A DNA stretch of 37,765 nucleotides, taken from Gottfriedia acidiceleris. GTDB lineage: Bacteria; Bacillota; Bacilli; Bacillales; Bacillaceae_G. Positions 182-37,765 of this stretch are shown here, one piece after another. The DNA lies in contig NZ_NESS01000023.1 in assembly GCF_002128425.1 (NCBI RefSeq), positions 1 through 37,765 of the forward strand. Reading direction: 5' to 3'. The first letter of the stretch is position 1; every line of letters starts with the position of its first letter. The position numbers were made by a program, and so were the translations under genes. The notes beneath the pieces were generated by a model. The model had not been told where the DNA came from. It was given only the letters and a program-made list of their open reading frames with translations, and did no database searches.

Positions 182-1447
182 TTAAACGATTTTTTTAGTG
201 TTGTTTACATTAGATTTCTCTACAACAAGACCTAATTTTTTAGCTACATAACCCGTCGTACTAGCTTGTATTAGAATAGTCATTAATATTGCGATAAAAG
301 TGACAGTCGTAATTTCGTTTGCATAATCAACTCCGGCTGCTATTATCATTCCGGAAATTGCTGCAGGAATAACTCCTGTTTCACGGACCCAAAACATGAA
401 AATAATTTCACTCCACGACCAATTTGCTTTTCGATCTGGTAAAGTGCAAAAAAGTACTGTTAGTGGTCGAGCAATAAACATGAAAACTAAAACAATCAGT
501 ACTCCTTGTATCCAATATTTACTTAAAATATGAAAATTCACTTGGGTTCCTAGTAACATAAAAATAAGCTTCCTCATAATTAATGTAGCATTATCCGAAA
601 AATGAGCATCGGTTGTTCGAGTCTCTACTGAAATATGAAGACGAAACAATTGTGGATTACCTAAAATTAGGCCAGCAGTAAAAGTTGCCATAAACCCACT
701 AGCATGAATTAATCCTGCTGTTAAATATGAGCTAATAGCTAAAACAAGACTAACTATTGTACTGTACTTATTTAAAAACGCCCATTTATGTGCTGAAGTA
801 ATAAATGCTCCAATGAAACCAATGATTATTCCAACTAATATTCCACCCCCAGCTTCACGAAAAAAACTCCAAACACTAGCTGAAATGGATAATTGCGATT
901 GTCCTAAAATGACTCCAAGTATAGTAAATGCCAAAATAGAACCCGTTGCATCATTAAACGCTGATTCACTTTCTACAGTTTGTCTTACTTTTTCATGGAT
1001 TGTAACTTGTTTAAAAACTGGAATCAAGGTTGCTGGGTCTGTAGATGCGATGACTGATGCAAGCAAAAGTGCATATAAGAATGGTAGCTTCAATAAATAA
1101 AAAGCTGTAACTGCTACAACTAATGCTGTAATAATGACTCCAAGAGTCGATAGTAGAGAGATGGTAATCCATACTTTTTTTAAAACGGAAACATGAATGG
1201 CTTTACCTCCTTCAAACAGAATTAAGACAGAACCTAGGACGATAATGAACTGATTTGCCACTGATTCATTTGGCAATGAAATGAAATTAAATACTGATGG
1301 ACCTACTAATATTCCGATTATCATAAATAAAGCTACATCAGGAATTTTTATTTTTTCAGCTAATTTAATTGCCAATAATCCAAAAATCAAGACAAAAGTA
1401 ATGATATATAATTCATGTTCAACAGCCTTCATTACAACTGATTCCAT
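182..1447 (-). CDS. CPA1-family cation:proton antiporter (NhaP-like)
   Basis: Integral membrane Na+(K+)/H+ exchanger of 421 aa with about 12 hydrophobic segments along the whole length. Two motifs typical of the family are visible: STDPATLIP with Asp137, and ESESAFNDATG with the Asn165-Asp166 pair that forms the ion site in NhaP-type exchangers. There is no long hydrophilic C-terminal regulatory tail, unlike the larger NhaP2/CvrA proteins. GAGGTG stands 7 nt before the ATG and supports this start. It is transcribed divergently from the KtrB gene, in a region full of K+/Na+ transporters, which suggests a role in expelling Na+ or K+. Ion preference cannot be read from the sequence. Confidence 0.85.
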   Translation of the reverse strand: MESVVMKAVEHELYIITFVLIFGLLAIKLAEKIKIPDVALFMIIGILVGPSVFNFISLPNESVANQFIIVLGSVLILFEGGKAIHVSVLKKVWITISLLSTLGVIITALVVAVTAFYLLKLPFLYALLLASVIASTDPATLIPVFKQVTIHEKVRQTVESESAFNDATGSILAFTILGVILGQSQLSISASVWSFFREAGGGILVGIIIGFIGAFITSAHKWAFLNKYSTIVSLVLAISSYLTAGLIHASGFMATFTAGLILGNPQLFRLHISVETRTTDAHFSDNATLIMRKLIFMLLGTQVNFHILSKYWIQGVLIVLVFMFIARPLTVLFCTLPDRKANWSWSEIIFMFWVRETGVIPAAISGMIIAAGVDYANEITTVTFIAILMTILIQASTTGYVAKKLGLVVEKSNVNNTKKIV

Positions 1448-1495
1448 AATGTTTCACCTCACAGGCACTTATAAACTAATCTTAGAATGACCTTG

Positions 1496-1524
1496 TTGAA
1501 CTCAAAATATTTACTCATTAAATA
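1496..1524 (+). promoter_or_regulatory. Putative SigA promoter of ktrB-ktrA
   Basis: TTGAAC at 1496-1501 and TAAATA at 1519-1524 with a 17-nt spacer, in the 177-bp gap between the divergent antiporter and KtrB genes. The -35 fits well and the -10 moderately. No riboswitch-like structure lies between it and the gene. Confidence 0.45.
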
Positions 1525-1624
1525 ACATGTTATTATTATATTTTTTCCTCAATGGGAATGCTAAATTGAAATGGGGAAAAAAATTTCGAATAAAAAATTA
1601 GGTGAAAAGAGGGGATGTACTACT

Positions 1625-2965
1625 ATGAGAAAAAAGCTGGAGCCTTCCTTAGACCCATCAAAAGTTTTAGTGATTGGATTTGCTCTCATTATTGTTTTAG
1701 GTAGTATTCTACTAACTCTACCAATCGCTACTAAGAATGGAGAAGGTCTGAATTGGCTGGACGCTTTATTCACTTCTACTTCAGCTACTTGTGTAACTGG
1801 ATTAGTGGTAGTGGATACTGGTACAACGTTCACGTTATTTGGACAATTAGTTATCTTGTCGCTCATTCAAGTAGGCGGTTTAGGTTTTATGACATTTGCT
1901 ACTTTTTTTGCAGTTCTCTTAGGTAAGAGAATTTCTTTAAAAGAACGCTTGCTATTACAGGAAGCATTGAATAATTTATCGATTGCAGGAATTGTACGTT
2001 TAGTAAAAAGAATCTTTATTTTTACAATTGTGATTGAATTAGTTGGTGGGATAATATTAGCAATTCGTTTTTCATTTGAAATGCCACTTAGAAAGGCAAT
2101 ATATTTTGGATTATTTCATTCCGTTTCAAATTTTAATAATGCTGGCTTTGATTTAATGGGAGGGTTTAAGAGTCTAACTGGTTATGTAGCAGATCCTACT
2201 GTTACAATTGTGGTTTGTTTATTGATTACACTTGGGGGAATCGGTTTTATCGTAATGAACGAATTATACGAATACAAAGAAACAGGTTTTCTCTCTCTAC
2301 ATACTAAAGTAGTTCTACAAACAAGCATTTATTTATTAGTTTTAGGAACTGTTCTGATTTTCTTCCTAGAATTGCATAATCCCAAAACATTACAGCCGTT
2401 ATCATGGACTGGCAAATTTCTTGGTTCATTGTATCAATCTGTGACACCTAGAACGGCAGGGTCCAATACACTCAATATACCTGATTTAACACAGTCTACA
2501 CTGTTCATAATTATCATTTTAATGTTTATTGGGGCATCTCCGGGTTCTACCGGTGGAGGGATAAAAACGACTACTTTCGCTACATTATTAGGAGCAGTTC
2601 GATCACAGATTAAAGGGAAAGAAGATGTTATATTTTTTAAAAGAAGTATCATGTACGACACTATTTATAAGGCACTTACTGTTACTGTAAGTGGTCTGCT
2701 TATTGTTATCTTTGTAACCATGATATTAACAATTACAGAGCATGGAAAGGACTTCTTAATGATCTTATTTGAAGCAACTTCTGCATTTGGAACTGTTGGA
2801 CTATCTATGGGATTGACCCCTGATCTAACACCAATTGGAAGAATCTTAATCATTTTAACAATGTTTGCGGGAAGAGTTGGTCCATTGACGATTGCTTTTG
2901 CTGTTACACTAAGAAGAACTTCGGATCCTTTTAAACGACCAAAAGGTAAAATCATGATTGGATAA
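1625..2965 (+). CDS. ktrB: KtrB/KtrD-type potassium channel subunit
   Basis: Membrane pore subunit of a Ktr K+ uptake system (Trk/Ktr/HKT superfamily), 446 aa from the chosen start, close to the ~445 aa of B. subtilis KtrB. All four selectivity-filter loops show their conserved glycine: TCVTGL (Gly59), NNAGFD (Gly174), PRTAGS (Gly279) and GTVGLS (Gly392). The glycine-rich intramembrane gate GSTGGGIK is also present. I prefer ATG 1625, which has AAGAGGGG about 10 nt upstream; an in-frame ATG at 1571 would add 18 residues but lacks a ribosome binding site. The regulatory subunit follows 38 nt downstream. Whether it is the KtrB or KtrD ortholog is not settled; gene order (pore first) differs from the B. 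subtilis ktrAB operon. Confidence 0.9.
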   Translation: MRKKLEPSLDPSKVLVIGFALIIVLGSILLTLPIATKNGEGLNWLDALFTSTSATCVTGLVVVDTGTTFTLFGQLVILSLIQVGGLGFMTFATFFAVLLGKRISLKERLLLQEALNNLSIAGIVRLVKRIFIFTIVIELVGGIILAIRFSFEMPLRKAIYFGLFHSVSNFNNAGFDLMGGFKSLTGYVADPTVTIVVCLLITLGGIGFIVMNELYEYKETGFLSLHTKVVLQTSIYLLVLGTVLIFFLELHNPKTLQPLSWTGKFLGSLYQSVTPRTAGSNTLNIPDLTQSTLFIIIILMFIGASPGSTGGGIKTTTFATLLGAVRSQIKGKEDVIFFKRSIMYDTIYKALTVTVSGLLIVIFVTMILTITEHGKDFLMILFEATSAFGTVGLSMGLTPDLTPIGRILIILTMFAGRVGPLTIAFAVTLRRTSDPFKRPKGKIMIG

Positions 2966-3003
2966 ATCGTACCAAATTCATTTTATATAGGAGCAATGTA
3001 AAT

Positions 3004-3657
3004 ATGAAAAATCAATATGCAGTTATAGGATTAGGTAGATTCGGCTCAGGTATTGTGAATACTCTATTGCAACACGGTAACGAAGTGTTAGTAATTGATA
3101 TGAATGAAGATCGTATTAATCAGTTTGCAGACATAGCTACACATGCAGTAATAGCAGATTCTACAAATGATGAAGCTTTAAAGGCAATTGGTATAGGTAA
3201 TTTTGACACAGTTATAGTAGCGATTGGAAATGATATGCAATCAAGTATTTTAACAACCTTAGTCTTAAATGAATTAAAAATTAAAAAAATTGTTGCGAAA
3301 GCATTAAATAAGCGTCATGGTGAAGTGTTAAAAAAAATTGGGGCTGATTGGGTTATCTATCCGGAAAAGAATATGGGAGAACGAGTAGCGCATCAATTAA
3401 TGTCACCAAATGTTTTAAACTTTATTGAACTCGCGCAAAATTACAGTATAGAAGAAATTAAGTTACCTTCAAAAATGGTTGGGAAAAGTTTGAAGGAATT
3501 AAATATTAGAGTAGAATTTAATTTAACTGTCATCGCTATAAAAAGCGAAGGAGTCGTTAATATCTCACCTTCTCCTGATGAAGTTATACATGAAGGAGAT
3601 GTATTGGTTATGATTGGAGAAAATAGGGATCTGCATCGTTTTTCAAATATTGAATAA
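3004..3657 (+). CDS. ktrA: KtrA/KtrC-type RCK regulator of K+ uptake
   Basis: Cytosolic ring-forming subunit that gates the Ktr pore, 217 aa. An N-terminal RCK_N Rossmann domain carries GLGRFG (Gly9-Gly14) followed by the acidic residue Asp32 at the end of strand 2, the nucleotide-binding pattern. The C-terminal ~80 residues match an RCK_C (TrkA_C) domain, which in Gram-positive KtrA/KtrC binds c-di-AMP. AGGAG lies 9 nt before the ATG. It is very probably cotranscribed with ktrB, and a strong terminator follows. KtrA versus KtrC assignment is uncertain, so the symbol marks the family role only. Confidence 0.88.
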   Translation: MKNQYAVIGLGRFGSGIVNTLLQHGNEVLVIDMNEDRINQFADIATHAVIADSTNDEALKAIGIGNFDTVIVAIGNDMQSSILTTLVLNELKIKKIVAKALNKRHGEVLKKIGADWVIYPEKNMGERVAHQLMSPNVLNFIELAQNYSIEEIKLPSKMVGKSLKELNIRVEFNLTVIAIKSEGVVNISPSPDEVIHEGDVLVMIGENRDLHRFSNIE

Positions 3658-3701
3658 ATAATTAAAAAAACAATTTTAAAAAAATATACGTATAACTATA
3701 T

Positions 3702-3745
3702 GGTAATTGCTTTTAAGTTCTCAAAAGTGATTACCTTATTTTTTT
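3702..3745 (+). terminator. Terminator of ktrB-ktrA
   Basis: Arms 3702-3714 and 3723-3735 form a 13-bp stem including two G-U pairs, with an 8-nt loop and a T-rich tail. It ends the Ktr operon and separates it from the CPA2 antiporter. Confidence 0.9.
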
Positions 3746-3925
3746 ACTATTTAATAAAAATGTCTAGAAAATATTTTAGCTTTTCTTTTTGCTTTATAAA
3801 AGTGTTCCCTATGAATATTTGTAGTAGAAGTAAAGATAATAATTACATAAATTTCGTAATGCACTCAGGCTGGAGGTGAATGTAGTAGTTGTTATTACGC
3901 TTAGGAGTCAATTACTACAGAATAT

Positions 3926-5056
3926 ATGCTTATTTTTCAACTTGCGATCATTTTAATCGCTTCAAAAATTGCAGGTGACATTAGTGTTAGACTAAAACAA
4001 CCGTCTGTTCTTGGTAAACTTTTAATCGGAATCATACTTGGGCCTACACTATTAGGATTAATTAATGACACAGATATATTAAAAGAAATAAGTCAAATCG
4101 GTGTAATTCTGCTAATGTTTATTGCAGGACTTGAAACAGATATTGATGAGTTTAAACGGACTGGAACAGCATCGACTTTAGTTGGAATTGGAGGGATTAT
4201 TGTACCATTTGGAATAGGCTATTTAATTGGAATGTTTATTCATTTAACTACTATTCAATCTAGTTTTTTGGGGCTTTTACTTTCCGCGACAAGCGTAAGC
4301 ATATCAGTACAAGTGTTGAAAGAAATGAACAAATTAAAAACCCGTGAAGGGGCAACTGTTATGGGTGCTGCAGTAATTGATGATATTTTAGTCATTATTG
4401 CGTTGGCATTTTTACTTAGCTTGGCAGGTGAAAGTGGAGATGTAAATTTGGGGAAAATAATACTTAAAAAAGTATTATTCTTTGTATTTGCAATTATTCT
4501 TGGATGGAAAGTTGTTCCATTTTTACTTAGAAAATTTTCTACATTACGTGTTACTGAAACCGTTATTTCTTCTGCTCTAATCATTTGTTTTCTATATGCA
4601 TATTTTGCAGAATACACTGGGGTTGCTGCAATTATTGGAGCTTATATTGCAGGTGTAGCAATAAGTGTAACTGAATTTAAGCACGAAGTATTTGAAAAAG
4701 TGGAGACAATTAGTTATTCATTGTTTGTACCAGTATTTTTCACTTCAATTGGAGTAACTGCTAAATTTACAGGGATTTTAGATAATATTTCCCTTATTAT
4801 CATATTAAGCATTATAGCAATTCTGACAAAATTAGTTGGATCATCTCTTGGAGCTAAAATTTCTCGATTCTCATGGAGGAATTCTCTAGGTATCGGATCA
4901 GCAATGGTATCAAGAGGTGAAGTTGCGTTAATTATTGCTTCTATAGGTCTAGAGAATAAATTATTAGATCAGTCATTGTTTACCGTCCTTTTAGTTGTTG
5001 TGCTCATTACTACGCTTGTAACGCCACCAATGATGAAGATATTTTTTAATGAATAG
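3926..5056 (+). CDS. GerN/NapA-like CPA2 Na+(K+)/H+ antiporter
   Basis: Membrane cation/proton exchanger of 376 aa. The sequence pattern, from the N-terminal RLKQPSVLGKLLIGI through the IDD pair (Asp152-Asp153) to the final TLVTPPMMKIFF, matches the CPA2 group with Bacillus GerN and Enterococcus NapA. The adjacent aspartates are the proton/cation site in that family. No RCK domain is fused. The ATG fits the family N-terminus but its ribosome binding site is odd: AGGAG at 3903-3907 is 18 nt away, with a stop codon just upstream in frame. GerN proteins can act in spore germination as well as Na+/K+ balance. No terminator is evident after it. Confidence 0.85.
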   Translation: MLIFQLAIILIASKIAGDISVRLKQPSVLGKLLIGIILGPTLLGLINDTDILKEISQIGVILLMFIAGLETDIDEFKRTGTASTLVGIGGIIVPFGIGYLIGMFIHLTTIQSSFLGLLLSATSVSISVQVLKEMNKLKTREGATVMGAAVIDDILVIIALAFLLSLAGESGDVNLGKIILKKVLFFVFAIILGWKVVPFLLRKFSTLRVTETVISSALIICFLYAYFAEYTGVAAIIGAYIAGVAISVTEFKHEVFEKVETISYSLFVPVFFTSIGVTAKFTGILDNISLIIILSIIAILTKLVGSSLGAKISRFSWRNSLGIGSAMVSRGEVALIIASIGLENKLLDQSLFTVLLVVVLITTLVTPPMMKIFFNE

Positions 5057-5148
5057 TACGATGTAATAGAATGATCGATTGACTATTAAAAAATTTATGG
5101 GAATTTACTTCTTGGCGCACCAAAGATACTAAATAAAGAAGTTGAAAA

Positions 5149-5209
5149 ATGTAAACGATTACCATAATAAGAGCACCAAAAATCATTCATTTCAAGTAAT
5201 CGTTTACAT
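5149..5209. repeat. Perfect 14-bp inverted repeat; each arm resembles a cre site
   Basis: Arms 5149-5162 (ATGTAAACGATTAC) and 5196-5209 are exact reverse complements 33 nt apart. Each arm fits the CcpA cre pattern WTGNAANCGNWNNCW at all but about one position. There is no T-run after it, so it is not a simple terminator. It lies 22 nt upstream of the putative promoter at 5232. A pair of CcpA sites, or a site for another LacI-type regulator, is inferred. Confidence 0.5.
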
Positions 5210-5231
5210 GGATTATTCCAAAAAACACCAA

Positions 5232-5260
5232 TTGACGAGTGATTTTAATCATGATAAAGT
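5232..5260 (+). promoter_or_regulatory. Putative promoter of the small peptide gene pair
   Basis: TTGACG at 5232-5237 and TAAAGT at 5255-5260 are separated by 17 nt. The duplicated leader begins right at its 3' edge (5261). The second copy has no comparable promoter, so both genes may depend on this one plus read-through of the leader hairpin. Confidence 0.4.
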
Positions 5261-5286
5261 TGGTCTTACGTTTAAAAACGAACGTC

Positions 5287-5315
5287 AAACCACGGCCATA
5301 GGTCATGGTTTTTTT
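5287..5315 (+). promoter_or_regulatory. Leader hairpin with U-run, copy 1 (possible attenuator)
   Basis: AAACCACGGCC pairs with GGTCATGGTTT (one C/A mismatch, one G-U) around ATA and runs into a T-tract, as in an intrinsic terminator. It is only 32 nt before the GTG start. A smaller stem, ACGTT with AACGT, precedes it at about 5268-5285. Together they look like a conditional leader, but I recognise no known riboswitch class. Confidence 0.5.
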
Positions 5316-5346
5316 ATATGAAAAAATCGCGAAAGGAGAATACAAA

Positions 5347-5535
5347 GTGAAGAATTTAATTTTATCTTTAGTTATTGGATGTGGATTTTCTATTTTACTG
5401 ACGGGGTACGAAACGAATATGTCAGAAGTTAATAAAAAGATCTCAACGTTTAATCAATCTGAGGTACAAAACGTGTTAACAAACATGGTAGCAGTTGATA
5501 AAACAAAAGAGATTATTTGGAATCAAGCACGCTAA
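5347..5535 (+). CDS. Small signal-peptide-like protein, tandem copy 1 (unknown)
   Basis: A 62-aa protein started by GTG, with AAAGGAG 7 nt upstream. It has a short basic start, a hydrophobic stretch (about residues 4-19), then a polar tail. The hydrophobic end reads ILLTGY, which looks like a lipobox whose expected Cys is Tyr; a Cys is present earlier at residue 12. Copy 2 shares about 46 of 62 residues. A ten-codon frame at 5318 (ATG) ends in a TGA overlapping this GTG. The protein may be secreted, membrane-bound or a peptide precursor. I do not recognise the family, and no RRNPP receptor or toxin partner is adjacent. Confidence 0.6.
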   Translation: MKNLILSLVIGCGFSILLTGYETNMSEVNKKISTFNQSEVQNVLTNMVAVDKTKEIIWNQAR

Positions 5536-5585
5536 TTAGTCGTGACTTTTTCTTTAAAATGGTCTTACGTTTAAAAACGAACGTC

Positions 5586-5614
5586 AAACCACGGCCATAG
5601 GTCATGGTTTTTTT
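5586..5614 (+). promoter_or_regulatory. Leader hairpin with U-run, copy 2
   Basis: This is the same hairpin as in copy 1, with no visible base change, 33 nt before the ATG of the second gene. Its preservation while the downstream coding sequence diverges suggests a function of its own. It may also act as the terminator of the first gene. Confidence 0.5.
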
Positions 5615-5646
5615 ATATGAAAAAAAATCGAGAGGAGATAACAAAA

Positions 5647-5835
5647 ATGAAAAAAGTAATTTTATCTTTAGTAGTTGGATGTGGATTTTCTATTTTGCTG
5701 ACAGGGTACGAAACGAATATGTCAGATGCTAATAAAAAGATCTCAACGTTTAATCAAATAGAAGTGCAAAACGTATTAACGAACACTTTAGCAAATTGTA
5801 AGTCACAACAAATCGTTTGGAATCAAGTACGATAA
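5647..5835 (+). CDS. Small signal-peptide-like protein, tandem copy 2 (unknown)
   Basis: A 62-aa paralog of the preceding gene, equal in length, with ATG start and AGGAGATA just upstream. The N-terminal hydrophobic segment and the central segment GYETNMS...NKKISTFNQ are nearly the same as in copy 1. Residues 47-60 differ strongly and include an extra Cys (residue 51). The Tyr in place of a lipobox Cys is kept. An in-frame ATG at 5617 would add ten residues but has no ribosome binding site and falls next to the leader hairpin, so 5647 is preferred. Function unknown. Confidence 0.6.
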   Translation: MKKVILSLVVGCGFSILLTGYETNMSDANKKISTFNQIEVQNVLTNTLANCKSQQIVWNQVR

Positions 5836-5933
5836 AAGCTCAGGGGTGCTTATAATTAGTATAGGTTCCTAATTTCTCGGATATTTTTTGGAGGGCTTCA
5901 AAAAAATTGATTGTAAATTTTAGTAAAAGTCTC

Positions 5934-5962
5934 TTTACAAATTTTACCTGAAGTTATATATT
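5934..5962 (+). promoter_or_regulatory. Putative promoter of the riboswitch-kimA transcript
   Basis: TTTACA at 5934-5939 and TATATT at 5957-5962 with a 17-nt spacer place transcription start near 5970, about 30 nt before the c-di-AMP aptamer. Confidence 0.55.
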
Positions 5963-6000
5963 TACATTTAAATTCTATATTTCTCTAATTCAAAACCAAA

Positions 6001-6125
6001 GTTGCTTAATCTAAAAAAGAGCGGGGGAACCAATTCTTTATTGGGGTGAATCCTTTTTAGTAAAGGTAGGGGTATTCTTTAATCCCGAATCCGACAGCTA
6101 ACCTCGTAAGCATTTAAAGAAGGGG
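6001..6125 (+). promoter_or_regulatory. c-di-AMP riboswitch (ydaO/yuaA class)
   Basis: The conserved blocks of the ydaO element occur in order: TGCTTAATCT, GCGGGGGAACCA, TTGGGGTGAATC, then CCCGAATCCGACAGCTAAC followed by CTCGTAAGC. These match my memory of the B. subtilis ydaO leader closely. A terminator follows 20 nt after the aptamer. In characterised members c-di-AMP stabilises the aptamer and favours termination, so kimA should be off when c-di-AMP (a signal of high K+) is high. Exact aptamer edges are approximate. Confidence 0.93.
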
Positions 6126-6145
6126 GTTTATTTAGTCTTGTTTTC

Positions 6146-6173
6146 AAACACTAAGTAAAGCTTAGTGTTTTTT
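6146..6173 (+). terminator. Expression-platform terminator of the c-di-AMP riboswitch
   Basis: A perfect 10-bp stem (AAACACTAAG with its complement at 6161-6170), a 5-nt loop and six Ts. It lies between the aptamer and kimA, more than 110 nt before the start codon, the position expected for a transcriptional OFF switch. Confidence 0.9.
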
Positions 6174-6293
6174 GTATGCAAAAAAGTATAAATTGGAAGC
6201 GATGAAAAGTTCATGACGTAACTCTGACTTTGCCTATAGCTCAACAATCAACATATTTTTTGTATGCTTTTTTTAAGAAAAGGGGAGAAATTT

Positions 6294-8198
6294 ATGCATC
6301 ATCCGTCCGAATATATAGAAATTGGACTATTTATTTTAGCGATTTTTGGGATTTATTACTCTGTTGCCAATTTTAACAGTGTAAAACGAGTATTTATTGG
6401 TAGACCAATGAGATCTGCAGAAATACATGCTCAGCATAATAAGTTGATTTGGTTTATTGCTTTACCAATTCTTGCAGCCGATTTGTATTCATCAGTATCT
6501 TATGGACCAGAAGCTGGAATGACTGAGTTAATCGGTCTAGGGGAAAAAGCACACTGGTATATCATTCCGATCACAATAGCAACGGTTTTTTTATTAGGGA
6601 TTCTAATTCTTTCATATATTATGGGGATTTTAGCTTATCCTAATGGTGGTGGAGCATATGCAATTGCAAAGGACAATTTCAAACCTCGTTGGGTTTCACT
6701 CGTCGCTTCAAGCTCACTATTAGTTGATTATATTTTAACAGTTGCAGTTTCAGTTTCTGCTGCTCTAGAAGCTGTGTCATCTGCATACCCAGCTGTTGCG
6801 CCTTATGAAACAGTTTTAGCGATTTTTTGTGTATTTTTATTATTAGTTGTCAATCTTCGTGGGGTGGCTGAATCAGCTAAAATTTTTGCATGGCCAACAT
6901 TTGGTTTTATGATTTGCATGTTACTATTAATTTTCACCGGATTTTTTGACGAATTCCAAAATGGATTTGTACAGCATCATACGCCTACATTTGGTACAGT
7001 TCCACAGGGATTAGGTATTTTACTTGTTTTAAAGGCATTTAGTTCTGCATGTTCTGCTTTAACAGGTATTGAAACAATTTCAAATGCAGTGCCAGTTTTT
7101 AGAGAACCTCGTCAAAAAAATGCAATTAAAACATATATAGCATTAGGAGTAATTACTTCAATTACACTTTTAGGCTTTGCTTATCATTTATATGTAAACG
7201 GAATTTCACCGAATCCAAATGATACAATGTTATCACAATTAATAAAGGTGTATTTTGGACACGGAATTTTATATCAAGTTATCATTTGGTTTACATTTAT
7301 CATTTTAATATTAGCTGCCAATTCAACATTTACTGGATTTTCGCAATTAGCAGCGATCGTAGCAGCGGATGGTTTTTTACCGAGAGGATTTACAAACAGA
7401 GGCGATCGTTTAGGGTATTCTAATGGTATTATTGCACTTGCTGCAGCAGCAAGTATTTTAATCATTGCATTCCAAGCGCATACAAATGCACTAATTCCAC
7501 TATACGCAATTGGTGTATTTTTATCATTTACCATTGCACAATTAGGATTAACAAGAAGATGGAAGCGAGTAAAAGGGCCTAAATGGCAAGTTAAATTAGC
7601 AATAAATATAATAGGATTAATTGTAACTTCTGTTGTTACCGTAATCTTTGCAGTTACAAAATTTGTAGATGGTGCTTGGGTTGTTTTAGTCGTAATTCCG
7701 ACGATTATATTCTTCTCTTTAGCTATTTATAAACATTATCAAAATGTAGCAAGCGAATTAAGAATCGATTTAAGTTCGTTTAAACCAGAAGCTAATAAAG
7801 TCATAACAGTTGTATTAGTTTCGGGAACTCATCGAGTTGTTCATAATACATTGTCATTTGCAAAAGGTATTGCATCAGAACCGATCGCTGTTTACGTAGG
7901 CTTTGATGATGAATCAATTGAGAGAATGGAAGAAAAATGGGAAGAATGGGGTAATCCATGTCGCTTAGTCGTTCTAAAAAGCCCGTATCGTTCAGTACTT
8001 GCACCCCTTTCAAGATTCATTAAGTTAATTGAAGCAAATGAACAAGATAGTCACGTGCAAATTGTGATTCCACAATTTATTCCTAAGAGATGGTGGCATA
8101 ATTTACTTCACAATCAAACAGCACTTTTACTTCGACTTTGGTTAATAAGTCAAAAGGATGTAGTCGTTACGACGGTTCCTTATCATTTGAGAAAATAA
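6294..8198 (+). CDS. kimA: KimA high-affinity K+/H+ symporter
   Basis: Membrane K+ importer of the KUP/APC superfamily (formerly YdaO), 634 aa. It has about 12 transmembrane segments, then a cytosolic domain from about residue 505 ending in TVPYHLRK, as in KimA. Asp63 and Tyr70 in ADLYSSVSYG correspond to the K+-coordinating Asp36 and Tyr43 of B. subtilis KimA. The N-terminus is about 27 residues longer than that protein and adds an extra hydrophobic segment (residues ~5-25). ATG 6294 follows AAGGGGAG by 6 nt; an in-frame ATG at 6264 has no such site. The c-di-AMP riboswitch directly upstream strongly supports the call. Confidence 0.93.
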   Translation: MHHPSEYIEIGLFILAIFGIYYSVANFNSVKRVFIGRPMRSAEIHAQHNKLIWFIALPILAADLYSSVSYGPEAGMTELIGLGEKAHWYIIPITIATVFLLGILILSYIMGILAYPNGGGAYAIAKDNFKPRWVSLVASSSLLVDYILTVAVSVSAALEAVSSAYPAVAPYETVLAIFCVFLLLVVNLRGVAESAKIFAWPTFGFMICMLLLIFTGFFDEFQNGFVQHHTPTFGTVPQGLGILLVLKAFSSACSALTGIETISNAVPVFREPRQKNAIKTYIALGVITSITLLGFAYHLYVNGISPNPNDTMLSQLIKVYFGHGILYQVIIWFTFIILILAANSTFTGFSQLAAIVAADGFLPRGFTNRGDRLGYSNGIIALAAAASILIIAFQAHTNALIPLYAIGVFLSFTIAQLGLTRRWKRVKGPKWQVKLAINIIGLIVTSVVTVIFAVTKFVDGAWVVLVVIPTIIFFSLAIYKHYQNVASELRIDLSSFKPEANKVITVVLVSGTHRVVHNTLSFAKGIASEPIAVYVGFDDESIERMEEKWEEWGNPCRLVVLKSPYRSVLAPLSRFIKLIEANEQDSHVQIVIPQFIPKRWWHNLLHNQTALLLRLWLISQKDVVVTTVPYHLRK

Positions 8199-14056: not shown

Positions 14057-17000
14057 ATGAAAGAGAGAAAATCGTCTCACAAAAGTAAGAGGCCAACAAA
14101 AAAAATACTTTCGATCTTTGCGTTAAGTTCGATGTTTTTAAATGTTGTGATTCCTCATAGTTATGCAAGTGGAAATACTGCTGAAGCAAAACTTAATCAG
14201 CAAAATTTATCTAGTAATACCTTTGATGCAAAAGAAGTAAACCGTATTCTTGACGGGCTTACACCAGAACAAAAAGCAAATATTAATAAGCTTACTGGTG
14301 CAGATCATACTGAAAAAATCCGTGTAGACAAAAAGGATTTAATCGGTTCAAAAAAGATTAATGTTGTTGTTCAATTTAAACAAGATCCAGCTAAAATACA
14401 AATCATTAAGCAATCTTTAGCTAAAGGTGGAGCAACTGCAAATAGTCAAGCTTTTGATAGCGAATATTCAGATGCTAAAATAAAAGTTAAAGATTCGCAT
14501 GCAAATTTTAAGACCTTTTTAAATACTCAACCTAAAACTTCTATTGTTGGCGGGAAAACTGTTAAAACAGAAATCAGTATTACTCGAGAATTTACAGATG
14601 CATTTAATGGAGTTGCTTTAACCTTACCAGCGAATTTAGTTCAAAAGCTTGCAGAAAGTCCAGATGTTGCGTCTGTTTGGTCTCAAGTAGAATATTCTTT
14701 ACCTGATGAAGGAATTTCTCAAAAATCAGCGACAGCTACATCAGTTGGCAAGCCAACAACAGGTCTATCATTTTTAGGGATTGATAAGCTTCAAGCTGAA
14801 GGGAATACAGGTATCATTAAAACAGGTCCACGTGCTGGTCAAAAGGTTAAAGTGGGTGTATTGGATACAGGTATCGATTACAATCACCCTGAACTTTATA
14901 AAGTAACACATGATGGAAATGGAAAATTATATGGTGGACATGACTTTGTAAATAATGACGGATTTGATGCAACAGGAAACATTAAGTATGTGGATGACCA
15001 TGATCCAATGGAAACAACTTATGATGATTGGGTAGCTGATAAAGAGAGTTCAAATCCAGTTTGGGGAACACCTCCTTCAGATTATAAGCCATATATTACT
15101 TCACATGGAACTCACGTTTCCGGTACGATTGCAGCAAATACGACGAATAATAACGATGTTTATTCGGCAAATGGGGTAGCACCTGATGTGGCTCTTTATG
15201 GTTATCGTGTATTAGGACCAGGAGGACATGGAACAACAGGATCTGTACTAAGTGGTATCGATCAAGCTGTAAAAGATCATATGGATGTAATTAATCTATC
15301 TCTTGGTGCAAATGTTAATGATCCATTATACCCAACAGCTATTGCGATTAACAATGCTACTTTAGCTGGAGTCGTGTGTGATGTTGCTGCAGGTAATGCT
15401 GGACCTGGGCAAGCTACAGTTGGTTCACCAGGAACTTCAGCACTAGCAATTACTGTAGGTGCAAGTACAATCCCTGAAGAAATTGCAACAATGACTGTTA
15501 AGAATGGTTCAGTTTCATATAAATCACGTTTATTTGGTAAAAACTTTTCACAAGCAGACGATGTTTATAAAGGTCAAACACTTCCGATCGTTGATGTTGG
15601 CTTAGGAAGTGAAGCAGACTATAGTGGAATTGATGTGAAAGGTAAACTTGTTCTAGTAAAGCGTGGCGTAGACTATTTATCAACAAAAATGGCAAATGCT
15701 AAAAATGCTGGAGCAGCGGGTATGATTATCTGGGATAATACGGATGATAGCGATAGCCAAGGTTACATTCCTAATTTCTTAGGAGTAAGCATGGATAATG
15801 TTTATTCGATTTCATTAACTCAGGAACAAGGACAAGCTCTTTCTGATGCGATTAAAAAAGACCCAAAATCAGCTAATATTACGTTCCCTTCTACACTAGA
15901 TGCACCTATTACTAAGAGCGGGGATGAATTAGCAAGCTTTAGCTCAACAGGCCCAGTTAAAGATTGGACAATTAAGCCAGATGTAGTTGCACCTGGAGTT
16001 GATATTTCTTCAACAGCTCCATACGATATTTGGGAGCCGAATGCAGCACATGATTATAAACTTGGTTATCAGATTATGTCTGGTACATCAATGGCAACTC
16101 CTCACGTTGCTGGGATCTCAGCTTTAATTTTAGCTGCACATCCAGATTATACACCGGCTGATGTCAAAACAGCATTAATGAATACTGCTAAAGATATTAA
16201 CACAGATTCAAAGACTTATAGTGTTTATCAAGTAGGAGCTGGACGTGTAGATCCATCACGTGCTATTAAAGAGAATGTAAAAATTCAAGTTTTAGATAAA
16301 ACAGTTACATTTGATAATCTAGCAGATATCTCAACAGCACATGAAGTAGATAACATTACAGGTAGCATGTTTTTTGGTTTTAAAGGTAGAGGAGAAGGTG
16401 CAACGAACGGTTCTGATGATGTAGTTTCTTCAAAAGATTTTAACGTTTCTAACGAAGGAACTAGCAGTAAAACATTTAATGTAAGTACGGAATTTATTTC
16501 CTCAAAATTTGCTGGGTCGAATAAAGTCGGACCAGGAACAGGAAATGATGTTAAAATTGATTTTTCGGTTGATGGAAATAACGTGAAATCGATTAATGTC
16601 GGCGGAGGAAGTACAGTCAAAGCTACGGCAAAAATAACAGTTCCGTCAAATTCACTTGAGGGTACTTACGAGGGGTATATCCATTTAATAAATGCAGCGG
16701 ACTCATCGGAGACTTATCGAATTCCATTTACAGTTACAGTTGCGGAAAAAGGAATTAATACGTTCAATGTTGTGCTAAAAGCTGCAGCAGAAGGAAATAT
16801 TTCAGCTTATAATGTTTCTGTTAACAACGAAATGGAAAACTTATATATTGTTGTGAAGGATAAAGACGGAAAGTATATAGGCGTAACAAACACATTATCA
16901 AGCGGTAGAAATTTTATCCCAGGTGTCCAATATGGTCCACTATTAACTCTTTTTAATGGATGGTATCTTCCATTTACAAAGACATACGATGGAACATATG

Positions 17001-20000
17001 ACGAATCTGGCATTGCAGATAAGGTGGAAGTACTAAAAGAAGGTAGTTACTCTCTCGAGATGATTGCTACTGGTAAAGATGGAAAACGTTACACAGCGGA
17101 AGATACTCTCTATGTTGATGGTACTCCACCGACTATGACGATGGATTCTGACTCCAAACCGGGAATCTATGAAATCAACACGACAGGGTACCTACCTGGA
17201 CAAGAAATTAAAGGATTTACAGGTACGGTTTATGACTCGAATGTAGACGTGATGAAAAATAATGGCGAAACATCAGTACCTAGTCCTAGGGATGGCAAAC
17301 CTGTTCCTGTTGATCAAGGGTTGAATATAGTCACTGGTTATCAAGACAGTCAATTCCCAACAGTTTACTTCAATACAAATGAGAAAGGTCGTTTCCACTT
17401 TGGTGTGACGAAAGAAGACGTAGCAAATAAACTAGGTAGTGATTTTATAATTGATCCTACAGATTTTTCGGGTGAAAATGATTATGAGATCAATAAACAA
17501 ACTTATTATTTTATTAAAAAAGGTAATCCTTACGTTACCCTAACTTCATCTAATGGAGTAGATGCAGGACCAGGTACCGAAGATAAAGTAGTTGTCGATC
17601 CGAATAAACCATTCAAAACAACAATCGCAACAAAATATGGTGTCGGAATGACTGGCGGTAAATTTTTACTGAATGACCATGGTGTGTACCAATTCTCTAA
17701 TATCCGACTAACAAATGAGTATAAAAACTATCTGATTAGTAAAGGAATCGATCCAACTACCGTCCTTACTGTAGGTCAACCATATACGCATCAAAATTAT
17801 CAAATTGGAAAAACAACAGATATCACAATTTCAAATATAGGTTCAGCAGGTGCTCTTGATCATGATATGCCGATTATTGAGGCAGATGTAACTTATACAA
17901 ACCTTGATCCTGTAGTAGGAGAATTTCCATATAACTTGTTGCAGGCGAATTTAACATTGTCAGGTGAAGATACAAGGGTTGCGTGGTTCCCGGTTGATAT
18001 ACCTTATGTAAGACAGTTCACTTCTATGATTAGAGGACGTGTAGCAGCGGAATCTTTCGCAAGAAACAACATTAATAATAACTATCCACAATTCACTGTT
18101 GATTCAGGTGCGAAGGTAACGGCTACAGATGCAAATGGTAAAAAATTTACAACAGATCAACCGACAACAGCTAATAATACAATGGCTTATGCGTTTATCA
18201 ACCCATATTATGCTTTGACAGCTGATGTAAGTGACAAGCCATATTCTTTGGAAGCAAGTGTACCAGGACATTTTAAAGGATATGAAAAAACACCTGTGAT
18301 TGGTCAAAACAAATTCGGTTATCAATCAGGTACAGTAAAAGATCTTCCGAGTCTCTTCCCAATCCTTTTAGGTGGAGATGTAAATGGTGACAACGTCATC
18401 GACATGAAGGATTTACTGAAAGAAATCGAAGTTTATTACCAATATAAAAACTTAACTAATTTTAATAATCCAGATAATAAGCTTGCAAACAAGACAGCAT
18501 TTTTAAATGCTAACCGTGATGCAGATATTTATTGGATTAAACCAACAGGATTTGGTTATGGCATTGACTATAATGATTTCTATTTTATCTTTAAAAACTT
18601 TGGTACGCAAAATCAAAGTGCGATTGATGCAGGCTTAAGTGTTCCAACTGCTCAACTAACAGTAGATAAAGATACGACGATCACAACGGATTATGCCGGT
18701 TCAATTTGGTTAAATGCTGGTGACACATTACAGCAAGTTATGCAAAAACTTAATTTTGCAGGTCCATCTCAAGCAGTTTCAACAACACCTAAGTTACAAG
18801 ACTTGCAAAATGGAGCAACGATTTCCCTTTCTCCATCAAGCACGATGTTCGTTGATGATTTAGTGTGGAGAAAAGCAATTACAAAAGTTATGCTAGGGTC
18901 AACTGATGTAACTGATAAAGTAACAATTAGTCCGGCTTACACGTATTATGATGCAAATGGTGTAAGTCAAACAATGCCTTCAAAAATTACGTTACCGGGT
19001 TCATTATTCCCGGCGGCAACGAATTATACAATTACAGTGAAGGCAACAGGTTACCAAGATGTAACGAAAACGTTAACAGTATCAACGGTGCCAATTCCGA
19101 CGCCTGCGATTCCAATTATCACAGACCCAACAGTAGCGCATATTGGGAATGATTTAACGTTATCTTTCCAAGAAGATGCGAACTGGCGAAATGGAATCAA
19201 TAAAGTAATTGTGACGACTAATACCGGTAAAACTGTGGATATCACGAATTTAATCAATCCAGATACAAATCAAAAATATTACGACATTAGCAAACCAGGA
19301 AAAATTACGTTTAATGCGAAAACATTTATGACGGATTCTACTCTTGATCCAAAAAATACTTCAACATATAATCAAGCGACAATCAATCCTGGTGGTAAAA
19401 ATTATTTACCTCAGCTTTACAAATTTACGATTGGCTCAACAGGTACAGATGGAACAGTTTATCCAGATACTATAGCAGGATCTGACCCAGTTTACACTGC
19501 GCAACAGCCTGTTGGCTATAGTATTACATTTGACAGTCAGGATGGCTCAGCCCCTAAGTCGATGGCAGTAGGATACAAACCGAACGCAAGTCGTTCGAAT
19601 GGTCCGAATAGTGATTTAGTAAGTTTTTATAGTCCTGCACCAACAAGACCGGGATATAAATTTCTTGGTTGGTGGAATGAACCATCTTTAAAAACAGTAT
19701 GGGATGCAGGTCCAATAACTGCAGACAAGACTGTTTATGCGAAATGGCAAATGAATACGACTCAAAGCTATTCACCAGTTGATAAAGCGAATCCGGATGG
19801 ATTAAAATTCGACGGAAGTAACGGAGGGGTTTCTGGTGTTGGTTGGATATTAGGAGAAGGCGATTTGAAAATCAACATTCCTGACTATTTAACAAATGTT
19901 TCTTGGTTAACATCTAAGGACAAGATTGCCAATATCGAGGCAACATTCTATCAGATGAAGAGCGATGGTTCAACGGAAACAACACCAACAGTCTATACGT

Positions 20001-37422: not shown

Positions 37423-37473
37423 AATATTGTTAATATTTATTGCAAAAAAGCTTCGTTTGGGAGAGTTGTGGTA

Positions 37474-37765
37474 AGTAAAAAAGCAAAAACGAGAAACATA
37501 CTTACTCATAAGAGGTTCATGAGTAAGTATAATAGCAAAAATCTAAAATGTAGTTACTCATTTCATGAGTTAGTAAAAAAGCAAAAACGAGAAATGTAGT
37601 TACTCTTAAAGGGTTCATGAGTAAGTAAAAAAGCAAAAATGAGAAATGTAGTTACTCATAAGAGGTTCATGAGTAAGTATAATAGCAAAAACGAGAAATG
37701 TAGTTACTCATAAAGGGTTCATGAGTAAGTAAAAAAGCAAAAACGAGAAATGTAGTTACTCATAA
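37474..37765 (+). repeat. 52-bp tandem repeat array with a hairpin per unit
   Basis: Units start at 37474, 37526, 37572, 37624, 37676 and 37728, a 52-bp period with one 46-bp unit (6-nt deletion). Each has AGTAAAAAAGCAAAAACGAG or a TATAAT variant, then an inverted repeat TTACTCAT...ATGAGTAA. Units 2 and 5 share the TATAAT variant, hinting at a three-unit higher order. The array continues past the window edge. There are no unique spacers, so it is not CRISPR. I see no gene in 37423-37765. Confidence 0.9.

What the first reader, a model, noticed from the sequence alone, without database searches (positions are those of the whole stretch)
5261..5835. Duplicated unknown peptide genes behind identical hairpin leaders
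Two 62-aa genes sit in tandem. Their ~60-nt leaders, containing a terminator-like hairpin right before the ribosome binding site, appear identical, while the proteins differ at about 16 of 62 positions, mostly at the C-terminus. Leader conservation above that of the coding region suggests a functional RNA or binding site. It may be an attenuator controlling a secreted or membrane peptide family with a variable tail, as in signalling or bacteriocin-like systems. The function is inference.
Basis: partly seen in the sequence, partly recalled or inferred. Interest (0 to 1): 0.72.

Follow-up and report, generated by a model that had tools for sequence, protein, structure and literature searches.

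The report
Peptide gene array with repeated RNA switches
In Gottfriedia soil bacteria, two or three related genes for tiny, probably membrane-anchored or secreted peptides of unknown function sit in a row next to a potassium-uptake gene, and each gene is preceded by its own copy of a short, strongly preserved RNA element that looks like an on/off switch for reading the gene.

Summary
Observation confirmed. Two 62-aa genes (5347-5535, 5647-5835) lie behind a 66-nt leader identical in both copies; the peptides differ at 15 of 62 positions (16 if the GTG start counts as Val), 12 of them in residues 25-62. This is an old duplication: 10 of 13 Gottfriedia genomes carry the array (2-3 copies), and the last copies form one clade (100/99). 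The 22 complete leaders all precede such genes, and other matches are at chance level. Leaders are 94-96% identical between species; kimA synonymous codons 71%.

The leader holds a terminator-like hairpin (10 pairs, kept in 22 of 22) and a conserved UGGU that can instead pair with the terminator's ACCA arm. A sigma-A-like promoter stands only before first copies, so later genes probably depend on read-through.

Best reading: one operon with a terminator/antiterminator attenuator before each gene, plus operator-like repeats upstream. Against it: covariation is not significant, the predicted start of copy 1 lies past UGGU, and the full leaders fold little better than shuffles. Trigger and peptide function are unknown; signalling or bacteriocin function is unsupported. 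The array precedes a c-di-AMP riboswitch and KimA-like gene in 10 of 10 genomes.

The parts
5149..5162 (+). left arm of 14-bp inverted repeat (ATGTAAACGATTAC), operator-like
   Evidence: 100% complementary to 5196-5209; 13 of 14 columns invariant in 9 genomes, flank left of it 3 of 65; found with one fixed 59-nt span in 8 of 13 genus genomes
5196..5209 (+). right arm of the inverted repeat (GTAATCGTTTACAT)
   Evidence: each arm is near-palindromic and resembles a LacI-family/CcpA cre box (consensus recalled; genome-wide scan showed little excess over control)
5232..5237 (+). -35-like element TTGACG
   Evidence: 6 of 6 columns invariant in 9 first copies; 9 of 12 promoter match in 9 of 9 first copies read, best 4-7 or none before 13 later copies, searched just upstream of the leader
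5255..5260 (+). -10-like element TAAAGT, 17 bp from the -35, TG extension
   Evidence: predicted start about 5266-5268 is inference
5261..5314 (+). leader element 1 (core 54 nt)
   Evidence: model match 86.7 bits (the model includes it); 47 of 54 columns invariant in 9 first copies
5261..5264 (+). UGGU, candidate antiterminator strand, partner of 5289-5292
   Evidence: pairing intact in 18 of 19 distinct leaders; exception is the first copy of G010
5268..5285 (+). hairpin 1 ACGUUU-AAAAAC-GAACGU
   Evidence: 97.3% of cells paired, one pair with a double change
5287..5311 (+). terminator-like hairpin 1 with a 1x1 mismatch; U run 5309-5315
   Evidence: 10 pairs, 100% of cells paired in 19 distinct leaders; z -3.47
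5332..5338 (+). ribosome binding site AAAGGAG
   Evidence: sequence
5347..5535 (+). peptide gene A, 62 aa, GTG start
   Evidence: homologues in 10 of 13 genus genomes; alignment A1
5528..5544 (+). short hairpin CACG...CGTG around the stop codon (minor)
   Evidence: spacer list shows A-U and G-C versions in different copies, broken in some; not tested statistically
5560..5613 (+). leader element 2, identical to element 1
5586..5610 (+). terminator-like hairpin 2; U run 5608-5614
   Evidence: same sequence as hairpin 1
5647..5835 (+). peptide gene B, 62 aa, ATG start; separate paralogue clade
   Evidence: tree: the 10 last copies on one side of a branch, 100/99
5993..6127 (+). c-di-AMP riboswitch (neighbour, not part of the element)
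   Evidence: RF00379, 111.9 bits; follows the array in 10 of 10 array genomes
6294..8198 (+). KimA-like transporter gene (neighbour)
   Evidence: PF13520 E 1e-27, K_trans E 2.7e-6; no NCBIfam match at 1e-10; the KimA name is inferred from these and the riboswitch

Best explanation
The array is an operon of two or three small one-helix peptide genes read from one promoter in front of the first copy. Before each gene stands the same short attenuator. If the terminator hairpin (AAACCA.GGCC/GGUC.UGGUUU + U run) forms, RNA polymerase stops before the gene. If UGGU pairs with the ACCA that the terminator needs, around the ACGUU hairpin, the terminator cannot form, the U run can pair with the A-rich stretch behind it, and the RBS stays free. 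An unknown factor (an RNA-binding antiterminator protein, or a ligand) would shift the balance. A DNA-binding regulator at the 14-bp inverted repeat probably sets initiation. Shown: the elements, their conservation, their exclusive link to the peptide genes in what was searched, the promoter match before first copies only, the two incompatible pairings. Inferred: that termination and antitermination happen, that a factor senses something, and that the peptides are inserted in or exported through the membrane.
For: The 22 leaders found by the covariance model in 13 genus genomes (72-87 bits) all lie before peptide copies, one of which is frameshifted; the best other match in the genus has 26.6 bits. 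In 397 order genomes 9 array genomes and 42 others pass E<=0.1; the best of the others has 29.6 bits, E 0.0017, and about 39 are expected by chance at that cut-off. Terminator helix paired in 100% of cells of 19 distinct leaders. Changes lie mostly in loops, the 1x1 mismatch and wobble pairs. UGGUCUU is unchanged in 13 of 13 later copies, whose upstream spacer is poorly conserved and has no good promoter, so there it acts in RNA or as a binding site. The antiterminator element alone (32 nt) folds at -7.6 kcal/mol, z -2.02, 7 of 200 shuffles as stable; the 48 nt from hairpin 1 to the U run fold at z -3.41, 1 of 200. The two folds are close in energy: on the 54-nt core the terminator wins in 22 of 22, by 1.8-2.6 kcal/mol in 21 and 8.7 in one; on the leader up to the start codon the antiterminator wins in 17 of 22. 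Leader identity is 0.959 (36 first-copy pairs), 0.942 (45 last-copy pairs) and 0.945 within genomes (14 pairs), so local gene conversion does not explain it; kimA synonymous codon identity is 0.713.
Against: The predicted start of copy 1 (about 5266-5268) lies past UGGU, so copy 1 could not form that antiterminator unless the true start is further upstream. The first copy of G010 has UGUU and cannot form the full helix. Covariation does not exceed shuffles (93 of 500 for the terminator fold, 73 of 500 for the antiterminator). Paired columns do not vary significantly less than unpaired ones (5 of 32 against 9 of 24, Fisher p 0.12). The whole leaders fold little better than shuffles (z -0.79 and -1.36; 55-nt core z -1.96, 10 of 200). 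One leader (G008 middle copy) has a broken hairpin 1. The UGGU...ACCA dyad could equally be a DNA operator. No transcript data exist here.
Confidence: 0.5

Rival explanations
1. The dyad TGGTnTnACGTT...AACGTnAnACCA is a DNA operator for a repressor that overlaps the start of copy 1 and acts as a road-block in later copies; the hairpin downstream is an ordinary constitutive terminator that merely lowers expression.
For: The dyad would lie at about -6 to +26 of the predicted start in copy 1, a usual repressor place; half sites are nearly symmetric; this explains why TGGT is kept in copy 1 although not transcribed from the predicted start.
Against: Pair 13/21 is U-G in 11 of 18 leaders, a pair in RNA but a mismatch in DNA; loop length varies by +1 and -2 nt in two leaders, one of them before the frameshifted copy; later copies without a good promoter match keep the dyad as well.
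Confidence: 0.2
2. The leader is an mRNA 5' stabiliser or processing element: a hairpin right at the 5' end protects each message, and cleavage between units gives separate stable messages.
For: With a start at about 5268 the RNA would begin with the ACGUU hairpin (inference); a copy stands before each gene, and a small hairpin spans the first stop codon.
Against: Does not explain the run of at least six U after the second hairpin in all 22 leaders, nor the complementarity of UGGU to its arm.
Confidence: 0.12
3. Type I toxin-antitoxin array: the peptides are small hydrophobic toxins and an antisense RNA pairs with the leader or gene, which explains nucleotide-level conservation of both.
For: One hydrophobic stretch, tandem copies, genus restriction; fourfold sites of the first copy are more conserved than kimA's in 45 of 45 genome pairs (0.865 against 0.626) without unusual codon usage.
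Against: The consensus scan of 5000-6320 found no minus-strand terminator and only one minus-strand promoter-like site, at 5155-5126, which reads away from the array; no trustworthy family match. A consensus scan is weak evidence.
Confidence: 0.1
4. No function of the leader: a recent tandem duplication or gene conversion made the copies alike.
For: Leaders are identical in the window.
Against: The two paralogue groups separate before the species do (tree); leader identity within genomes (0.945) is no higher than between species (0.942-0.959) while spacers have diverged.
Confidence: 0.03

Closest known systems
RAT/terminator switches of the BglG/SacY/LicT (PRD) antiterminators
   Same: A short interrupted hairpin upstream whose 3' strand is the 5' arm of an intrinsic terminator, so the two exclude each other (NagY paper PMC9981650, passages seen; LicT contacts two bulges, PMC7430163, passages seen).
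   Different: The sequence is not the RAT consensus (consensus recalled); that pattern finds three places elsewhere in the own genome and none in the leader. What follows is a peptide gene, not a sugar gene.
ANTAR (NasR/AmiR/EutV) dual-hairpin antiterminators
   Same: Small hairpin with a six-base loop upstream of a terminator.
   Different: Only one such hairpin before the terminator, loop AAAAAC and variants without G at position 4; ANTAR targets have two hairpins with A1 and G4 (PMC3369931, abstract and passages seen).
B. subtilis pyr operon (PyrR) attenuators
   Same: The same attenuation mechanism is used three times in one operon (PMC7430163, passage seen).
   Different: Genes unrelated; whether the leader could bind PyrR was not tested beyond the lack of an Rfam match.
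c-di-AMP riboswitch (RF00379)
   Same: Lies 100-185 nt downstream of the last gene of the array in 10 of 10 genomes (distances).
   Different: The leader itself is not a match, neither at gathering score nor at E<=10.

Membership tests
Intrinsic (Rho-independent) terminator | G+C-rich hairpin directly followed by a U run | tested here: met
   10-pair helix in 19 of 19 distinct leaders, at least six U; z -3.47. The stricter consensus scan did not list it.
Transcription attenuator with antiterminator | Two mutually exclusive folds sharing a strand | tested here: met
   5289-5292 can pair with 5261-5264 or with 5306-5309; 18 of 19 distinct leaders. Prediction only, without significant covariation.
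Transcription attenuator with antiterminator | Whole switch lies in the transcript | tested here: inconclusive
   Likely for later copies (no good promoter match of their own); the predicted start of copy 1 excludes 5261-5264.
Transcription attenuator with antiterminator | Observed premature termination and its relief | not testable with these tools
   No transcript data.
BglG/SacY/LicT RAT | RAT consensus sequence (recalled pattern GGNTTGTNACTG...GCANNNAAAACC) | tested here: not met
   Exact pattern finds three places in the genome, none in the leader.
ANTAR target RNA | Two hairpins with hexaloops, A at 1 and G at 4 | tested here: not met
   One hairpin before the terminator, loop AAAAAC and variants; definition from passages.
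Any Rfam family | Score at or above gathering | tested here: not met
   Only RF00379 at 5993-6127 in the window; 11 sub-threshold matches at E 0.16-9.2 in 5050-6000, all far under their cut-offs.
Lipoprotein | Lipobox with Cys at +1 after the hydrophobic stretch | tested here: not met
   TG is followed by Tyr21 in 22 of 22; the other candidate, VG-Cys12, would leave a signal of only 11 residues.
Known peptide, bacteriocin or defence family | Trustworthy match in Pfam, NCBIfam, PHROGs, PADLOC or PDB sequences | tested here: not met
   Best weak matches: TIGR00288 E 0.044, phrog_2316 E 0.018 in 11 of 22 members, no function known, PF25291 E 0.063 in 1 of 22; PADLOC and PDB none.
Type I toxin-antitoxin | Antisense RNA to the toxin message | tested here: inconclusive
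   No minus-strand promoter-like site over the array in the consensus scan; no transcript data.

The most novel reading that the evidence does not exclude
An undescribed class of protein- or ligand-responsive antiterminator, repeated before each gene of a genus-specific family of tiny membrane peptides next to the c-di-AMP-controlled potassium importer, so that the number of peptide genes read grows step by step with the signal; the peptides may tune potassium transport at the membrane.
Probability: 0.2. Interest if true: 0.75.

Novelty: new variant of a known kind. Interest (0 to 1): 0.5.

Why it matters
If the switch works as drawn, it is a very short (54 nt) attenuator that fits no family searched, present in several copies per operon, and an easy system in which to look for a new antiterminator protein or ligand. 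The peptide family is also without any known relative in the collections searched. The fixed place beside the c-di-AMP riboswitch and the KimA-like gene gives a concrete first guess about what it serves.

Tried and rejected
Recent duplication or gene conversion: spoken against by tree and identity comparison. Codon bias as the reason for slow synonymous change in the peptide genes: not supported, adaptation to rplB codons is 0.28-0.42 against 0.29-0.34 for kimA (one reference gene, so rough). RNA structure inside the coding sequence: no consistent signal in 80-nt windows. A mini-ORF starting at the ATG behind the U run: it is a 10-codon frame in some copies and in frame with the peptide in others, so taken as chance. 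Structure prediction: pLDDT 55.6, pTM 0.26, so no fold search was run. Relatives in plasmids, phages and viral contigs: none at the limits used. Weak protein matches outside the genus (10 of 299 genomes, E 5e-4 to 0.08) were taken as chance from their E-values, part-length coverage and frames; they were not looked at one by one. Genome-wide cre-like scan: 33 matches against 24 for the reversed control, so CcpA control remains a guess. A covariation proof failed.

Limits and rows left out: protein alignment A1 holds 22 of 23 copies (the frameshifted middle copy of G011 left out); leader alignment A2 holds 22 of 23 (first leader of G008 cut by a contig end); the tree has 22 of 23 copies; the column conservation uses 9 of 10 genomes. 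Scripts located units by the motif CATGGTTTTTT, so they favour copies with that hairpin; the covariance model found the same 22, but it was built from them. One search used stricter filters and scored few candidates per genome. kimA comparisons use the roughly 460-486 codons in the fetched loci, a few of them before the start codon. mis-set several start codons and is superseded. One search used a wrong structure string and is superseded. Of the three genus genomes without the array, only G003 and G007 were inspected at kimA.

Full report
What is there. The window is contig 16 of a 4.77 Mb assembly. Homologous named loci are Gottfriedia acidiceleris, Gottfriedia luciferensis and five Bacillus sp. 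strains (7 loci), so the host is taken to be a Gottfriedia; that is inferred, since the window's own record is not named. Peptide gene A is 5347-5535 (GTG start) and gene B 5647-5835 (ATG start), each 62 aa. The leaders 5261-5326 and 5560-5625 are identical over 66 nt. The proteins differ at 15 of 62 positions (16 if the GTG start is counted as Val), 12 of them in residues 25-62.

Distribution. The peptide is found in 10 of 13 genus genomes and in 0 of 6 genomes of three other genera of the family. With a profile, 299 genomes of the order gave the 6 array-bearing Gottfriedia sampled there plus 10 weak matches, taken as chance. Pfam, NCBIfam, PHROGs, PADLOC, PDB sequences, plasmids, phages and viral contigs give nothing trustworthy. 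Each array has two or three copies, 23 in all; one, the middle copy of G011, is frameshifted and still has its leader.

Age and constraint. A tree of 22 copies puts the 10 last copies on one side of a branch with support 100/99; first and middle copies are on the other. So the duplication is older than the split of these species, and recency does not explain the identical leaders. Leader identity is 0.959 between first copies, 0.942 between last copies and 0.945 within genomes. In the same genomes kimA synonymous codons are 0.713 identical, with 0.47 expected from codon usage alone, and rplB 0.958. In nine first copies, 47 of 54 leader columns are invariant, against 3 of 65 in the flank left of the conserved block and 2 of 24 in the spacer behind the gene.

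Upstream control region of copy 1. A 14-bp inverted repeat (5149-5162, 5196-5209) occurs with the same 59-nt span in 8 of 13 genus genomes. G010 has a change in the left arm that is not compensated in the right, which fits DNA sites better than an RNA stem. Each arm resembles a LacI-family or cre box; the consensus is recalled, and a genome-wide scan gave little excess over its control. TTGACG-17-TAAAGT or TAGAGT stands before 9 of 9 first copies that could be read, with 9 of 12 matches; just upstream of the 13 later leaders the best is 4 to 7, one none. So later genes most likely depend on read-through from the first promoter.

The leader. Two folds compete. In one, ACGUUU/GAACGU and the terminator hairpin form; in the other UGGU pairs with ACCA, the 5' arm of the terminator, around the same ACGUU hairpin. 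The terminator helix is paired in all cells of 19 distinct leaders, the UGGU-ACCA helix is complete in 18 of 19. On the 54-nt core the terminator is favoured in 22 of 22, by 1.8-2.6 kcal/mol in 21; on the leader up to the start codon the antiterminator is favoured in 17 of 22. In the two window copies the best fold of the leader pairs the U run with the A-rich stretch behind it. Variation is mostly in loops, the 1x1 mismatch and wobble pairs, but formal tests are weak: one pair with a double change, which shuffles reach in 93 and 73 of 500, and p 0.12 for paired against unpaired columns. Conservation is too high for covariation to speak.

Search for the leader elsewhere. The covariance model, built from these leaders, finds the 22 in the genus at 72-87 bits, all before peptide copies; the next match in the genus has 26.6 bits. 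In 397 genomes of the order, 9 array genomes and 42 others pass E<=0.1, about the 39 expected by chance; the best other match has 29.6 bits. Rfam has no match for it at gathering score, and only far sub-threshold ones.

Against the attenuator. The predicted start in copy 1, 6 to 8 bases past the -10 element, would leave UGGU out of that transcript; then either the true start is upstream, or UGGU serves as a DNA site, or copy 1 is regulated otherwise. The whole leaders fold at z -0.79 and -1.36 only, the 55-nt core at z -1.96, while the 48 nt from hairpin 1 to the U run reach z -3.41. These points keep confidence at one half.

The peptide. Residues 4-20 are strongly hydrophobic (Kyte-Doolittle mean 2.26-2.27) after one or two Lys, then about 40 mostly polar residues with invariant I56, W58 and N59; this suggests a single membrane helix or an export signal. 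The predicted structure is of low confidence. Y21 stands where a lipoprotein would have Cys. A puzzle: fourfold sites of the first copy change unusually slowly (identity 0.865 against 0.626 in kimA, higher in 45 of 45 pairs; last copy 0.722, higher in 35 of 45), without unusual codon usage or a consistent structure signal.

Neighbourhood. In 10 of 10 array genomes a c-di-AMP riboswitch follows on the same strand, with a KimA-like gene behind it. In G003 and G007, two of the three genomes without the array, riboswitch and gene are present and the array block is absent; G005 was not inspected there. To the left the neighbours differ in the seven genomes looked at: a CPA2-type antiporter in the window and, by its sequence start, in L038 and L041; a TrkA-like gene in L043; ArsB-like frames in L040, L042 and L044. 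So a link with potassium uptake is suggested by position only.

Literature. Searches for Gottfriedia (15 papers, listing only), Bacillus luciferensis (23 papers, 8 listed), KimA with small protein (2 papers, listing) and attenuation with small membrane proteins (1 paper, listing) show no description of this array in titles or the shown starts of abstracts. Antiterminator papers came; of these PMC9981650, PMC7430163 and PMC3369931 were seen as abstract or passages. The library lacks most subscription journals.

Verdict. A real, selected leader element tied to a genus-specific peptide family; most likely a repeated attenuator; trigger and peptide function open.

Noticed in passing
G000:C12:213908-215184 (L120 909-2185): Three c-di-AMP riboswitches in a row upstream of a kdpA gene (TIGR00680), with a 132-aa frame between the second and third; the own genome has 10 matches in all.
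   Followed up: partly
G000:C21:12652-13721 (L121 1653-2722): Three c-di-AMP riboswitches within about 1.1 kb, two on the minus strand and one divergent; divergent pairs also occur in several relatives.
   Followed up: partly
window 5347-5535: Synonymous sites of the first peptide gene are far more conserved between species than those of kimA, without codon bias or RNA structure to explain it.
   Followed up: partly
window 5528-5544: A short hairpin spans the stop codon of the first gene, with A-U and G-C versions in different copies and broken pairs in some.
   Followed up: no
window 37464-37765: Tandem repeat of about 52 bp running to the contig end.
   Followed up: no
window 14057-22099: A 2680-aa subtilase with four List_Bact_rpt repeats, three Shr-like_HID stretches and an Ig domain.
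   Followed up: no
window 182-5056: Cluster of cation transport genes: two Na/H exchanger-family antiporters, a TrkH-like and a TrkA-like gene.
   Followed up: partly
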